A stretch of 58,092 nt of DNA from a virus. A program made the position numbers and the translations under genes. The notes under the pieces are model-generated. The model did no database searches and was not told where the DNA came from. It saw only the letters and a list, made by a program, of their open reading frames with translations. The stretch lies in IMG/VR virus record IMGVR_UViG_3300047585_000006, positions 1 to 58,092 of that record; one strand, 5' to 3'. Shown piece after piece: positions 33,037 to 53,517 of this stretch. The stretch's first letter is position 1. Each line of letters starts with the position of its first letter.

Positions 33037-33073
33037 ATCTTCATGACACAACCTAGCTAATAGCTGCAATTTG

Positions 33074-35912
33074 TTACTCGCCTTGCGGCGGGATAAGACA
33101 TTTCTGCTTACCTCTCATAGTTTATCATTTCCTATGAGATCAGACTATCGCATCACACTTTCGTGTGTTCTCTCGCTTAGTCGTTCAGGCTGCCTTGCGG
33201 CTTGCCCCTTGTTGGCATTTCAGCGTCCAAGTCAATCAGAGAGAATTTATACCGCCCCATTGTATTAAGGCGGCGTCAATCTGTCGCATACGGATGGTGG
33301 TATCAGGACCAAGAGAGGTCGTGAAATGCACCCGATACGATGTCCCACAAATTCAGATCAACAACCCGGACAGACGATTATCCGGGGATCAGCCCTTCAG
33401 GATCAGCAACAGTCGGTTCAGCATTCTGCGGGTGTTACCTAGACTGTTAGTAAGGGTTAGTCATTTCTGCTAACCTCTCATACTTACTTTTCGTATGAGA
33501 TCGGACTATTGCATCGCCTTACGGCGTCTTCTCGCTTAGTCTCTCAGCGTACCTTTCGGCTTCGCCCTCGTTGGCATTTCAGCGTTCGAGTCAATCAGAG
33601 AAGATTTTACATCGTCCAGTTTGTTAAACGATGTTGCACTTGATGTTTCGCCAATCGCCGTCACCGTAGGTGGTGTCGTTCTGGGCACCCAGATTGATTG
33701 AGAAGATTCCGTCCTTACCGAAAATGTAAGTGCGGAGTGCCGTCAGACCAGTGACGCCCTTGTAGTTCGAGGTCTTCGTTACAAGGTTCGTCTGGAAGAA
33801 ATGAACTCCGGTTGAAGGCAGTTCAATCACTTCCTCAAGGTCAACGCTGACCAGTTCGTCCATCTTGGCTTGGCCCACCGGAGTGTGCTTCAAGATGTCG
33901 ATTGGAGAGTCGTTGCTGTTATCAGCAAGCACGTCACCCAGAGCGAACGGGTGTATGTAATTGTGTTTGGGTTAAATCGGAAGATTTCCGAACCCTACAT
34001 CACTGTAGGTACGCTCTCATTGTCACCAATGAGTTCAGACTCTATCTTGACTTCTTGCGAAGTCTCTTGCGTATTAGTCGTTAGAGATGACCCACGTTTG
34101 TTCAGTGTTTGCATTTTCCCCAGCAATTCTTTTCGTTTCGCTGCGAGAGTTTCGTCAAAACCGTTGTTGTGCGGAAGCCTGATATACTGAAGGGCTATAT
34201 TCGCCTGCTCTTGTTTGATTACCAGATACGGTAGAATCCCCAAGAGCAACTGCTCACTGTTGGTTCGTCCTTTTGGACGCCAGCCATAAGCAATCTTGTG
34301 TTTCAGATTTGCACGACGGTGATGATAGTATTGTCCACCAAAGTGCTGTACGAGCCACTCCATCAAATCGAGATTCGTATTTGTGACTTCGATACGAATC
34401 GCAGTTGAATCATAAGGACTGCCGTTACTCGACAACCCCTTATGGTGGTAGATACTGAAAGTGCCTTCACCATCAAACATTCCGGCCAGATACGACCAAT
34501 ACACCTTGTCAGGTGTTTTCATAGGTTCTTTCCTCGGTATTTTCTGCTTCGATTCTAATCTAACAGATGTTCACCGATATAGCAAGATTTTTTAACGTTG
34601 GAGCCATACTCTACGCATGTGCTGCGTAGGCTTTGGTGTTAACCCCAACGAATGCTTTGGATGCTTCGTCAAACGGACGGATCGAGCGACCTGCCATCGA
34701 CTGGACAGAGTTACGAATCTGGCTCAGAGACAGTGCAGTGAAGCTGGCCGTGGTCGAAGCAGCAAGCTGCACGAGCACGGAAGCGTCAATGCTGGACGCA
34801 CCGTCGGCGGTTGCACGCACAAGTGCGGACAGGGACTCGCCCAGACGGTAAGACATTTCCTTCGCAACGTTCTCGACGGTGTTGTCAATCGTGGTAGCGA
34901 GAGACAGAGACGAGAAGTTCGCGTAATCTGCGTACTCACCAATGGTCGCGGTGGTAGTCAGAACGCTGATGGACAGAGACGATCCCACAGTCCCTTCCGT
35001 AGTCGGGTTCGTGTTCTGGGCCAGAGGGACGTACATAAACCAATTGTGTTTTGGGTTTAAGGCAGAAAGCCCCCTAGTTCACACTAGGGTCGCTCTACAT
35101 ATCACTATGCAGTTCAGACTCTATCTTTACGACACTGGCGTGTCGATGTTTGACGTATTAGTCGTTGGGGATTCCACATCTTCATCGTACTGGTGGAGAC
35201 TTTTCATTTTCTCCCACAGTTGATAACGTCGTTCAGGATTTTCAACACCTGTCATACGAACGTATTCAAGAGCCGTCACTGCCTGCTCTTGTTTAATTAA
35301 CAGGTATGGTAGGATTCCAAGAAGAAAGGCTTCTACCTTCTTGTGACCCCCTAGGCAAGACCATTTGAAGCATTGTCTTTTCCCTAGTTTTCCGAGAGAG
35401 ACTTCATAGAAATCTCCACCGAAATACCGAACCATCCATCGCATCAACCGCTGAGACGTATTGATTACTGAAATCTTAAGATTGTAATTGTAGTAAGGCG
35501 TGCCTATTTTAGTTTCAGCACAAACCCTACTGATACAAATACATCCTTCGCAATCAACCGCCATCGCTGCCATAGCGAGTTTGGTTTTATCCTGTGTCAT
35601 TATCATGATGTGGTCTTTCCTCCGTCTTGTCTACATTATAGATATTAACGGATATAGTCAAATTTATTTTTAAGTACGGGACTATCATGTAATCTCGTAC
35701 TGGTTACCAGACTTCATGGGGAGGTCGAGGCGTTCCGAACAACGTACGAACGGAGTGTTAGCCTTCAAATTCTCCCTGAATCGCTTATCGTAGTACTTCC
35801 ACCACGATGATTCTTCTGCGGAAATCGAACTTCTCCCAACGTCTGTTTACGGCAAAGTAACCGTGGATTGGGGGAGGTTGGACAACTGATTGCCCGCAGG
35901 CGAAAATGACAT
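33074..35912 (-). CDS. Major capsid protein (N4 gp56-like), split into five exons by four group I introns
   Basis: Join on the minus strand: 35912-35692, 35040-34641, 33956-33627, 33429-33267, 33098-33074. The joined protein is about 350-366 residues. It reads MSFSPAGNQLSNLPQSTV (exon 1), KYYDKRFRENLKANTPF, then across junction 1 SGNQYE-M-FMYVPLAQNT, ATIGEYADYANFSSLSL, across junction 2 KAFVGV-IHPFALGD, across junction 3 IKCNIV-QNAEPTVADPEG, then TSYRVHFTTSLGPDTTIRMR, and across junction 4 QIDAAF-LIPPQGE. This corresponds, from memory, to the N4-gp56-type capsid family. GAAAGG precedes the ATG. Two interruptions remain: TAA at 35849-35847 (codon 22) and a 38-nt stretch 33381-33344 starting with TAA. 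The scaffold-position gene lies directly upstream. Confidence 0.82.
33099..33266 (-). ncRNA. Group I intron 4 in capsid gene, ORF-less
   Basis: The intron is 168 nt. The P1 helix pairs exon CCGCCUU with intron GGGGCGG and puts U-G at the 5' splice site; the intron ends in G. Core elements are visible: a P3/P7 segment CGACUAAGCGAG, a GAAA-capped P8 hairpin (CACAC/GUGUG), GAUAGUCUG for P7 3', and a P9 hairpin (CUCAUAG/CUAUGAG). The sequence is closely related to intron 3 (same blocks GCTGAAATGCCAAC, ACTAAGCGAGA, GAGAGGTxAGCAGAAATG). Confidence 0.8.
33430..33626 (-). ncRNA. Group I intron 3 in capsid gene, ORF-less
   Basis: The intron is 197 nt. P1 pairs exon ACAUCGUU with GACGAUGU (eight pairs, U-G last) and the intron ends in G before CAGAATGCT. 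The core contains GCTGAAATGCCAACGAGG, GAGACUAAGCGAG, a GUAA-capped P8 (CGCC/GGCG), AAUAGUCC and a P9 stem (CUCAUAC/GUAUGAG). Relative to intron 4 it has about 30 extra bases after the P9 region. Confidence 0.8.
33995..34522 (-). CDS. LAGLIDADG homing endonuclease in intron 2
   Basis: A single LAGLIDADG motif lies near the N-terminus (YLAGMFDGEGTFSI, about residues 12-25), so the enzyme should act as a homodimer. Further family signals are VTNTNLDLMEWLVQHFGG and ILPYLVIKQEQANIAL. The 3' end of the gene overlaps intron core structure. It has its own promoter (34557-34585) and a good ribosome site (GAGGAAAG). It presumably targets the intronless capsid allele. Confidence 0.92.
   Translation of the reverse strand: MKTPDKVYWSYLAGMFDGEGTFSIYHHKGLSSNGSPYDSTAIRIEVTNTNLDLMEWLVQHFGGQYYHHRRANLKHKIAYGWRPKGRTNSEQLLLGILPYLVIKQEQANIALQYIRLPHNNGFDETLAAKRKELLGKMQTLNKRGSSLTTNTQETSQEVKIESELIGDNESVPTVM
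34557..34585 (-). promoter_or_regulatory. Promoter for intron 2 endonuclease
   Basis: TTGCTA (34585-34580), a 17-base spacer and TAGATT (34562-34557) lie inside the intron, just ahead of the endonuclease ribosome site. Confidence 0.5.
35127..35606 (-). CDS. LAGLIDADG homing endonuclease in intron 1
   Basis: The 159-residue protein has one LAGLIDADG-type motif (LAMAAMAVDCEGCICI, about residues 10-25). It also has the conserved blocks ISVINTSQRLMRWMVRYFGG and LLGILPYLLIKQEQAVTALE, closely parallel to the intron 2 enzyme. GGAGG lies 11 bases before the ATG, and a promoter is inside the intron. Confidence 0.92.
   Translation of the reverse strand: MIMTQDKTKLAMAAMAVDCEGCICISRVCAETKIGTPYYNYNLKISVINTSQRLMRWMVRYFGGDFYEVSLGKLGKRQCFKWSCLGGHKKVEAFLLGILPYLLIKQEQAVTALEYVRMTGVENPERRYQLWEKMKSLHQYDEDVESPTTNTSNIDTPVS
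35635..35661 (-). promoter_or_regulatory. Promoter for intron 1 endonuclease
   Basis: TTGACT (35661-35656) and a perfect TATAAT (35640-35635) are separated by 15 bases, slightly short. It lies inside intron 1 directly upstream of the endonuclease. Confidence 0.55.
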
Positions 35913-53028: not shown

Positions 53029-53517
53029 ATGACGGCGAAAGAACGAACCCGCTTATGGAGATTAGCCAACCCTAAGCGTGCGAGGGAATCGTGCAAAAAC
53101 TGGCAAAAGAAAAATCGGGAACGAGTTGCTGCGGCGAATAAAATTTGGCGTACCCGAAACGCTGCAAAAATTAAACGACGCCGCCAATTAGATGCTCCTC
53201 GACAAAGACAAAACAAAAAGATGTGGGCACTCAATAATCCTTTCAAATTGAAGATGGGCTACGTTCGTCGAATGTTACGACGTGCAGGATGTCCCGAGAT
53301 TGAGATCACAAAGGCGATGCTTGCATGGGCGGCATTCGCAGGAATATGTCACGCATGTAACACCGCGTGTTCCCGAGTTTGGGTAACCGATCACGATCAC
53401 ACAAAATTAACCTTTCGGGGAATAGTCGGAAATGGTTGTAATCATGCCTTGGGTAAAGTGCAATACGATCCCAATAGGCTTCGTGCGTTAGCATCGTATC
53501 TAGAAAGCCACTCATGA
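53029..53517 (+). CDS. Free-standing homing endonuclease, endonuclease VII-like
   Basis: The ATG at 53029 follows GGAGG; the longer frame starts before the terminator. A basic N-terminus (MTAKERTRLWRLANPKRARE) leads to CHACNTACSRVWVTDHDHTK, LTFRGIVGNGCNHALGKV and RLRALASYLES. It resembles the 4437-5030 enzyme in its catalytic block (RGVIG/RGIVG instead of RGLLC). The stop overlaps the primase start (ATGA). Confidence 0.9.
   Translation: MTAKERTRLWRLANPKRARESCKNWQKKNRERVAAANKIWRTRNAAKIKRRRQLDAPRQRQNKKMWALNNPFKLKMGYVRRMLRRAGCPEIEITKAMLAWAAFAGICHACNTACSRVWVTDHDHTKLTFRGIVGNGCNHALGKVQYDPNRLRALASYLESHS

What the first reader, a model, noticed from the sequence alone, without database searches (positions are those of the whole stretch)
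33074..35912. Major capsid gene in five exons with four group I introns
The capsid protein is encoded in pieces that join in frame only if four insertions of 651, 684, 197 and 168 nt are removed. Each has a P1 helix of 7-10 bp that places U-G at the 5' splice site, and the joined protein restores expected segments (SGNQYE-M-FMY, FVGV-IHPF, CNIV-QNAE, IDAAF-LIPP). Four introns in one structural gene of 350-odd codons is exceptional for a phage and makes capsid production depend on ribozyme splicing.
Basis: partly seen in the sequence, partly recalled or inferred. Interest (0 to 1): 0.92.

Follow-up and report, generated by a model that had tools for sequence, protein, structure and literature searches.

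The report
Capsid gene with core-less mini-introns
A soil-phage capsid gene is cut into seven pieces by four self-splicing (group I) introns and two tiny inserts that carry splice-site guides but no ribozyme, and in dozens of related phages such tiny inserts always lie just upstream of a complete intron, as if one ribozyme removed both.

Summary
The interrupted capsid gene is real, but it has six insertions, not four. On the minus strand, 35912-33053, removing 60, 651, 684, 198, 34 and 201 nt leaves exactly 1032 nt, a 343-aa protein 98.5% identical to an uninterrupted relative. The four long inserts are group I introns; the ~200-nt ones show strong covariation, the two longest carry homing-endonuclease ORFs. 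The short inserts are the discovery. In relatives, 31 distinct inserts of 32-98 nt each hold a group I-type guide matching the 5' exon end (P1, U.G) and, contiguously, the 3' exon start (P10), and end in G, but are too short for a ribozyme core. Every one lies immediately upstream of a complete intron (30 architectures; one contig truncated); no uninterrupted relative has one. Translational bypass fits 0 of 32. Best reading: core-less, non-autonomous group I mini-introns spliced by the neighbouring ribozyme, a natural counterpart of engineered spliceozymes. Splicing itself is inferred; no RNA data were available.

The parts
33053..35912 (-). Major capsid gene, seven exons: 35912-35860, 35799-35692, 35040-34642, 33957-33627, 33428-33380, 33345-33268, 33066-33053 (1032 nt, 343 aa + stop)
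   Evidence: joined CDS equals uninterrupted homologues in length and is 98.5% identical to L081; PHROG 1357 major head protein
35800..35859 (-). Mini-intron 1 (60 nt, codon 18, contains in-frame TAA): guide GCCGU pairs with ACGGU| (P1, U.G), UACUUU pairs with |GAAGUA (P10), ends in G; no core
   Evidence: fold
35041..35691 (-). Complete group I intron, 651 nt, codon 54
   Evidence: Rfam Intron_gpI E 5e-4 at 35095-35421; P1 10 bp, ends in G; absent from homologues
35127..35606 (-). Endonuclease-like ORF (159 aa) in the codon-54 intron, same PHROG family as the ORF in the codon-187 intron
   Evidence: PHROG 5046 E 2e-13; no Pfam match
33958..34641 (-). Complete group I intron, 684 nt, codon 187; ends in A instead of G
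   Evidence: Rfam E 1e-4, model R1 E 1.6e-5 at 33992-34152; P1 9 bp, P10 5 bp
33995..34522 (-). LAGLIDADG homing endonuclease ORF (175 aa), overlapping the 3' part of the ribozyme core
   Evidence: Pfam LAGLIDADG_1 E 1.3e-5, PHROG 5046 E 6e-24
33429..33626 (-). Complete ORF-less group I intron, 198 nt, codon 297
   Evidence: Covariation alignment A1; model R1 match at 33454-33608 (training member)
33346..33379 (-). Mini-intron 2 (34 nt, codon 314): guide GUCCGGG pairs with CCCGGAU| (P1, U.G), GUCU pairs with |GGAC (P10), ends in G; no core
   Evidence: codon-314 covariation in relatives; P1 hairpin is the predicted fold, z -3.1
33067..33267 (-). Complete ORF-less group I intron, 201 nt, codon 336; presumed partner core of mini-intron 2
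   Evidence: model R1 match at 33091-33249 (training member)

Best explanation
The capsid gene is interrupted by four complete group I introns and two core-less mini-introns. A mini-intron keeps only what a group I ribozyme must see at its splice sites: a guide forming P1 with the 5' exon (U.G at the cut) and, directly next to it, P10 with the 3' exon, plus a terminal G. It has no P3-P9 core. The complete intron just downstream (codon 54 for mini 1, codon 336 for mini 2) most likely supplies the catalytic core in cis, docking the mini-intron's P1 hairpin, cutting after the U and joining the exons aligned by P10, and then removes itself. Shown from sequence: the exact insertions, the covarying group I cores, the P1/P10 guides and their covariation, and the invariable downstream core. 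Inferred: that the RNA is spliced, that the neighbour's core is the catalyst, and that mini-introns arose from complete introns by loss of the core.
For: Removing the six inserts gives exactly the 343-aa protein of uninterrupted relatives. Long inserts: 35 of 43 core pairs change on both sides, 201 such cells against 52.7 in shuffles. Mini-introns: all 31 distinct ones have U at the 5' exon end, G opposite it and G as last base; guide score against their own junction averages 24.7 (minimum 18) while 790 pairings with other sites reach at most 17. U/G ends were partly used to choose boundaries, but a test letting boundaries shift in real and shuffled inserts alike still gives 27 of 32 at p<=0.01. 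Pooled mini-intron P1/P10: 96% of cells paired, P10 100%. At codon 314 synonymous Gly codons GGA/GGU/GGC are matched by guide U/A/G. P10 is stronger in mini-introns than in complete introns (p 1.7e-4), as expected if the guide alone places the 3' site. 43 mini-introns in 30 architectures are each immediately upstream of a complete intron except on one truncated contig; random order within genes P about 5e-13; L251 alternates mini-complete three times. No uninterrupted homologue has a mini-intron. At codons 20, 22, 31, 52, 54 and 327 some phages have a complete intron and others a mini-intron. In L095 the mini-intron, the exon between and the complete intron appear to have been transferred together: 17 differences from L093 in that 108-nt exon against 18 in the other 921 nt. 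Engineered spliceozymes show a group I ribozyme can remove 64-100-nt introns in trans (PMC4094466).
Against: No RNA evidence of splicing. No base-pairing between mini-intron tails and partner cores beyond chance, so recruitment would rest on tertiary docking of P1, for which there is no direct evidence. Mini-intron tails share no common motif. The downstream association could partly reflect shared descent and hitch-hiking with a homing neighbour; the random-order probability ignores relatedness.
Confidence: 0.7

Rival explanations
1. The mini-introns are spliced, but not by the adjacent intron: a group I ribozyme or splicing factor acting in trans (another intron of the phage or host, or an excised intron RNA) removes them, and their place next to complete introns reflects co-transfer during homing.
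For: Mini-intron and neighbour moved together in L095; excised group I introns can act in trans; no pairing between mini-intron and neighbouring core was found.
Against: Does not explain why mini-introns are always upstream of, and never without, a complete intron, nor why no gene without complete introns has one.
Confidence: 0.18
2. The short inserts are not spliced but skipped by the ribosome (programmed translational bypass as in T4 gene 60 or mitochondrial byps).
For: Similar size (32-98 nt); some begin with a stop codon near the insertion point (e.g. GGA TAA at window codon 314); hairpin at the 5' edge.
Against: Matching take-off and landing codons that keep the conserved protein occur in 0 of 32; the covarying guide to the 3' exon (P10) and terminal G are group I splice features.
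Confidence: 0.04
3. The mini-introns are decayed remnants and these capsid alleles are dying or make a truncated capsid.
For: In-frame stops and frame breaks in each insert; some read-through products end in degron-like tails.
Against: Exons remain under purifying selection (94 synonymous to 15 non-synonymous), the guides track synonymous exon changes, and many independent contigs carry them.
Confidence: 0.05
4. The complete intron uses the mini-intron's 5' splice site to skip the exon between, giving a shortened capsid variant.
For: Exon skipping between adjacent group I introns is known (Twort orf142, Coxiella; PMC10136302).
Against: Mini-intron P10 pairs with the exon between in 26 of 26 distinct guides; skipping would remove conserved capsid residues.
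Confidence: 0.03

Closest known systems
Phage group I introns with homing endonucleases (T4 td/nrdB/nrdD; Twort orf142 with three introns; cluster J mycobacteriophage capsid and tail introns, PMC3706429)
   Same: Group I cores, P1 with U.G, P10, endonuclease ORFs, structural gene as host; Twort orf142 has several introns and a very short exon
   Different: In the described cases each intron has its own core; here there are six insertions in one capsid gene, two of them without a core
Group I spliceozymes (engineered Tetrahymena ribozymes that remove 64-100-nt introns in trans, PMC4094466)
   Same: One group I ribozyme removes a core-less short intron bounded by two recognised splice sites
   Different: Engineered, trans-acting, with the guide in the ribozyme; here it would be natural, in cis, with the guide in the short intron
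Group III introns of Euglena chloroplasts (from memory)
   Same: Short introns reduced from self-splicing ones and dependent on outside catalytic parts
   Different: Derived from group II, not group I; helpers are not tied to an adjacent downstream intron
T4 gene 60 bypass element and mitochondrial byps (from memory)
   Same: Short non-coding gaps inside phage or organelle genes
   Different: Take-off/landing rule met in 0 of 32; guides to both exons and U/G ends point to RNA splicing
Coxiella burnetii 23S rRNA introns (34-nt exon: PMC10136302; missing omega-G from memory)
   Same: Two group I introns around a very short exon; one lacks the usual terminal G, like the window intron 34641-33958
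   Different: rRNA gene; both introns complete

Membership tests
Group I intron (the four long inserts) | Conserved core P3-P8 and P4-P6 with P7 | tested here: met
   Covariation on 24 ORF-less introns including both ~200-nt window introns; Rfam E 1e-4 and 5e-4 for the two ORF-bearing ones, below gathering score; R1 E 1.6e-5 for the 684-nt one
Group I intron (the four long inserts) | U.G wobble at the 5' splice site in P1 | tested here: met
   P1 of 8-10 bp at codons 54, 187 and 297; about 7 bp at codon 336, read from the sequence
Group I intron (the four long inserts) | Last intron nucleotide is G (omega-G) | tested here: inconclusive
   Met for the 651-, 198- and 201-nt introns; the 684-nt intron ends in A, as do 15 of 77 complete introns of relatives
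Group I intron (the four long inserts) | Guanosine-initiated self-splicing | not testable with these tools
   Needs in-vitro transcription and splicing assay
Group I intron (the 60- and 34-nt inserts) | P1 with U.G, P10, terminal G | tested here: met
Group I intron (the 60- and 34-nt inserts) | Own catalytic core | tested here: not met
   34-60 nt cannot hold the ~150-nt core; no R1 or Rfam match there. They work like group I introns at the splice sites but are not autonomous members
Translational bypass element | Matching take-off and landing codons that preserve the protein | tested here: not met
   0 of 32
Homing-endonuclease intron (651 and 684 nt) | Encoded homing endonuclease | tested here: met
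   684 nt: LAGLIDADG_1 E 1.3e-5; both ORFs match PHROG 5046. Cleavage activity not tested

The most novel reading that the evidence does not exclude
A natural non-autonomous class of group I introns: 32-98-nt introns consisting only of a double guide (P1+P10) and a terminal G, each spliced by the catalytic core of the complete group I intron immediately downstream, so that one ribozyme performs successive splicing events in one mRNA. This would be a natural spliceozyme and a group I parallel to the proposed route from self-splicing to spliceosomal introns.
Probability: 0.6. Interest if true: 0.96.

Novelty: new variant of a known kind. Interest (0 to 1): 0.9.

Why it matters
Group I introns are regarded as carrying their own catalyst. 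If core-less mini-introns borrow a neighbour's core, self-splicing introns have natural dependents, and the step from a cis-acting ribozyme to a catalyst serving other introns exists in nature, where so far it has been engineered. It is a small, directly testable system: one capsid gene with natural alleles carrying none to three mini/complete pairs. It also matters for annotation: 32-nt introns are invisible to current intron models and break capsid gene calls in metagenomic phages.

Tried and rejected
Pairing between mini-intron tails and partner cores: no more than chance. Pairing of tails with the upstream exon: not significant overall (3 of 32 at about p 0.05), although the predicted fold of both window mini-introns closes P1 with an outer helix (the fold of mini 1 is no stabler than shuffles). 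Translational bypass: 0 of 32. Mini-introns in other genes: a de novo search upstream of 79 group I cores, mostly on other viral contigs found with a core motif, gave one further capsid case (L357) and one non-capsid candidate (L321), against 4 in 341 control positions, so no evidence outside this capsid family. Rfam at gathering thresholds finds none of the introns. Spliced-cDNA-like contigs: near-identical uninterrupted alleles exist (L201 vs L209 99.6%, L093 vs L095 97%), but nothing marks them as RNA-derived. Open-access literature searches found no description of core-less group I introns; subscription papers were not covered.

Full report
What is there. The gene is on the minus strand. 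A protein-to-DNA alignment that allows free insertions, with an uninterrupted homologue as template, found insertions of 60, 651, 684, 198 and 34 nt. The sixth follows from the C-terminus: the full-length uninterrupted homologues at hand end ..ID(A)ASAIS or close variants, and the window has GACGCCGCCT|TAATAC...AACAAATTG|CAGCTATTAGCTAG, a 201-nt insertion. Removing all six leaves 1032 nt encoding 343 aa, the length of the Tunturiibacter phage Tunturi_3 capsid CDS, 98.5% identical to the uninterrupted IMG/VR gene L081/L001, with 94 synonymous and 15 non-synonymous differences. The record is a 58-kb viral contig; its nearest named relative infects Tunturiibacter, an acidobacterium. In the window the terminase and portal genes are uninterrupted.

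The long inserts are group I introns. Rfam gives E 1e-4 and 5e-4 for the two ORF-bearing introns and only weak hits for the two ~200-nt ones, none at gathering score. An alignment of 24 ORF-less introns from this capsid family shows P3, P4, P5, P6, P7, P8 and two P9 hairpins: 94.5% of cells paired, 35 of 43 pairs with changes on both sides, covariation 0.56 against 0.19 in shuffles and at most 0.14 in slid versions. P7 itself hardly varies, so it rests on conservation. A covariance model of this alignment finds both ~200-nt introns (which are in the training set) and, independently, the 684-nt intron at E 1.6e-5. The ORFs are LAGLIDADG-type or of the same PHROG family. The 684-nt intron ends in A; 15 of 77 complete introns in the family do so.

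The family. About 300 loci were fetched. Capsid genes range from uninterrupted to six insertions, at some twenty sites. Insertions fall into two size classes: 177-1202 nt, and 32-98 nt. Of 56 distinct architectures with insertions, 30 contain short ones, 43 in all.

The short inserts carry double guides. Each starts with 4-15 nt, then a stretch that pairs with the 5' exon end, with a G opposite the terminal U; the bases directly before that G pair with the first bases of the 3' exon. This is the P1/P10 arrangement of a group I internal guide sequence. All 31 distinct short inserts have it; their last base is G and the exon before them ends in U. The U and G ends were rewarded when choosing among equivalent boundaries, so they are not independent evidence, but the guide is: in a test in which real and shuffled inserts could both shift boundaries, 27 of 32 reach p<=0.01, and no insert pairs with another site's junction as well as with its own (own minimum 18, other-site maximum 17 in 790 pairings). 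In the pooled duplex table U.G is invariant in 26 of 26, P10 is 100% paired and P1 94%. At codon 314, Gly codons GGA, GGU and GGC are matched by U, A and G in the guide, and Pro CCC/CCU by G/A. The protein stays the same while the guide follows synonymous changes, as selection on splicing predicts.

The short inserts have no core and always have a core downstream. 32-98 nt cannot hold the ~150-nt core. In every architecture the next insertion downstream is a complete intron, 20-215 nt away; the single exception is a contig that ends before that point and whose twin (L049) has the intron. L251 alternates short and complete three times. If the order of insertions within each gene were random, the chance would be about 5e-13, ignoring relatedness. 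More than forty distinct uninterrupted capsid genes contain no short insert. Short and complete introns share sites (codons 20, 22, 31, 52, 54, 327), as expected if one is a reduced form of the other. P10 is longer in short inserts than in complete introns (p 1.7e-4) while P1 is the same, as expected if the 3' splice site must be placed by the guide alone. In L095, compared with the 97% identical uninterrupted L093, 17 of 35 differences sit in the 108-nt exon between mini-intron and complete intron, and only 1-2 in similar stretches on either side: the pair appears to have moved together.

Mechanism. Most likely the P1 hairpin of the mini-intron docks into the core of the next intron, guanosine cuts after the U, the terminal G of the mini-intron takes the G site, and P10 aligns the exons for ligation; the complete intron then splices itself. 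Precedent in the laboratory: spliceozymes (PMC4094466). No extra pairing between mini-intron and core was found. Whether it acts in cis before, or in trans after, the complete intron leaves is open. A possible selective reason, inferred only: a mini-intron occupies and so protects a homing site at minimal length.

Rivals. Ribosomal bypass fails the codon test in all 32 cases. A trans-acting catalyst with hitch-hiking remains possible (0.18). Exon skipping, known for adjacent group I introns (PMC10136302), would delete conserved residues and is contradicted by P10 pairing to the exon between.

Limits. There are no RNA data. Boundaries rest on protein conservation plus guide pairing. Relatedness inflates counts. 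The literature search covered open-access papers only, so the claim that core-less group I introns are undescribed is provisional.

Noticed in passing
window 34641-34611 (start of the codon-187 intron); L021, L033, L121, L131, L048: Read-through of unspliced introns often ends in a recurrent peptide: KAFAAAA*, KAMAAAA*, KAYAAHA*, KAMAAVAGR*, at five insertion sites (codons 52, 91, 187, 294, 314) with different codons. It resembles alanine-tail or ssrA-type degrons and may mark truncated capsid for proteolysis.
   Followed up: partly
window 33958; 15 of 77 complete introns in relatives: The intron 3' end is A instead of the near-universal G, without an obvious change in P7.
   Followed up: partly
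window 30255-30001, 29020-28775, 49340-49098, 19050-18805, 43144-42896, 41904-41701, 53296-53508, 4613-4467: About eight regions similar to one endonuclease VII of Tunturi_3 are scattered through the 58-kb window.
   Followed up: no
L365, L341, L319, L346, L366: Distantly related capsid genes also appear to be interrupted by group I introns, several with two or three; the capsid gene may be an intron hot spot beyond this family.
   Followed up: partly
L321:10500-10832: Possible 46-nt mini-intron 33 nt upstream of a group I core in a non-capsid ORF; about as many are expected by chance.
   Followed up: partly
L298 (PSRA01000113.1): A contig with an uninterrupted capsid gene of this phage group is binned in a MAG labelled Bacteroidetes, while the isolated relative infects an acidobacterium; possibly mis-binning.
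   Followed up: no
L140:114-271 and L025:197-354: Group I cores of the same family lie about 4 kb upstream of the capsid gene, outside it.
   Followed up: no
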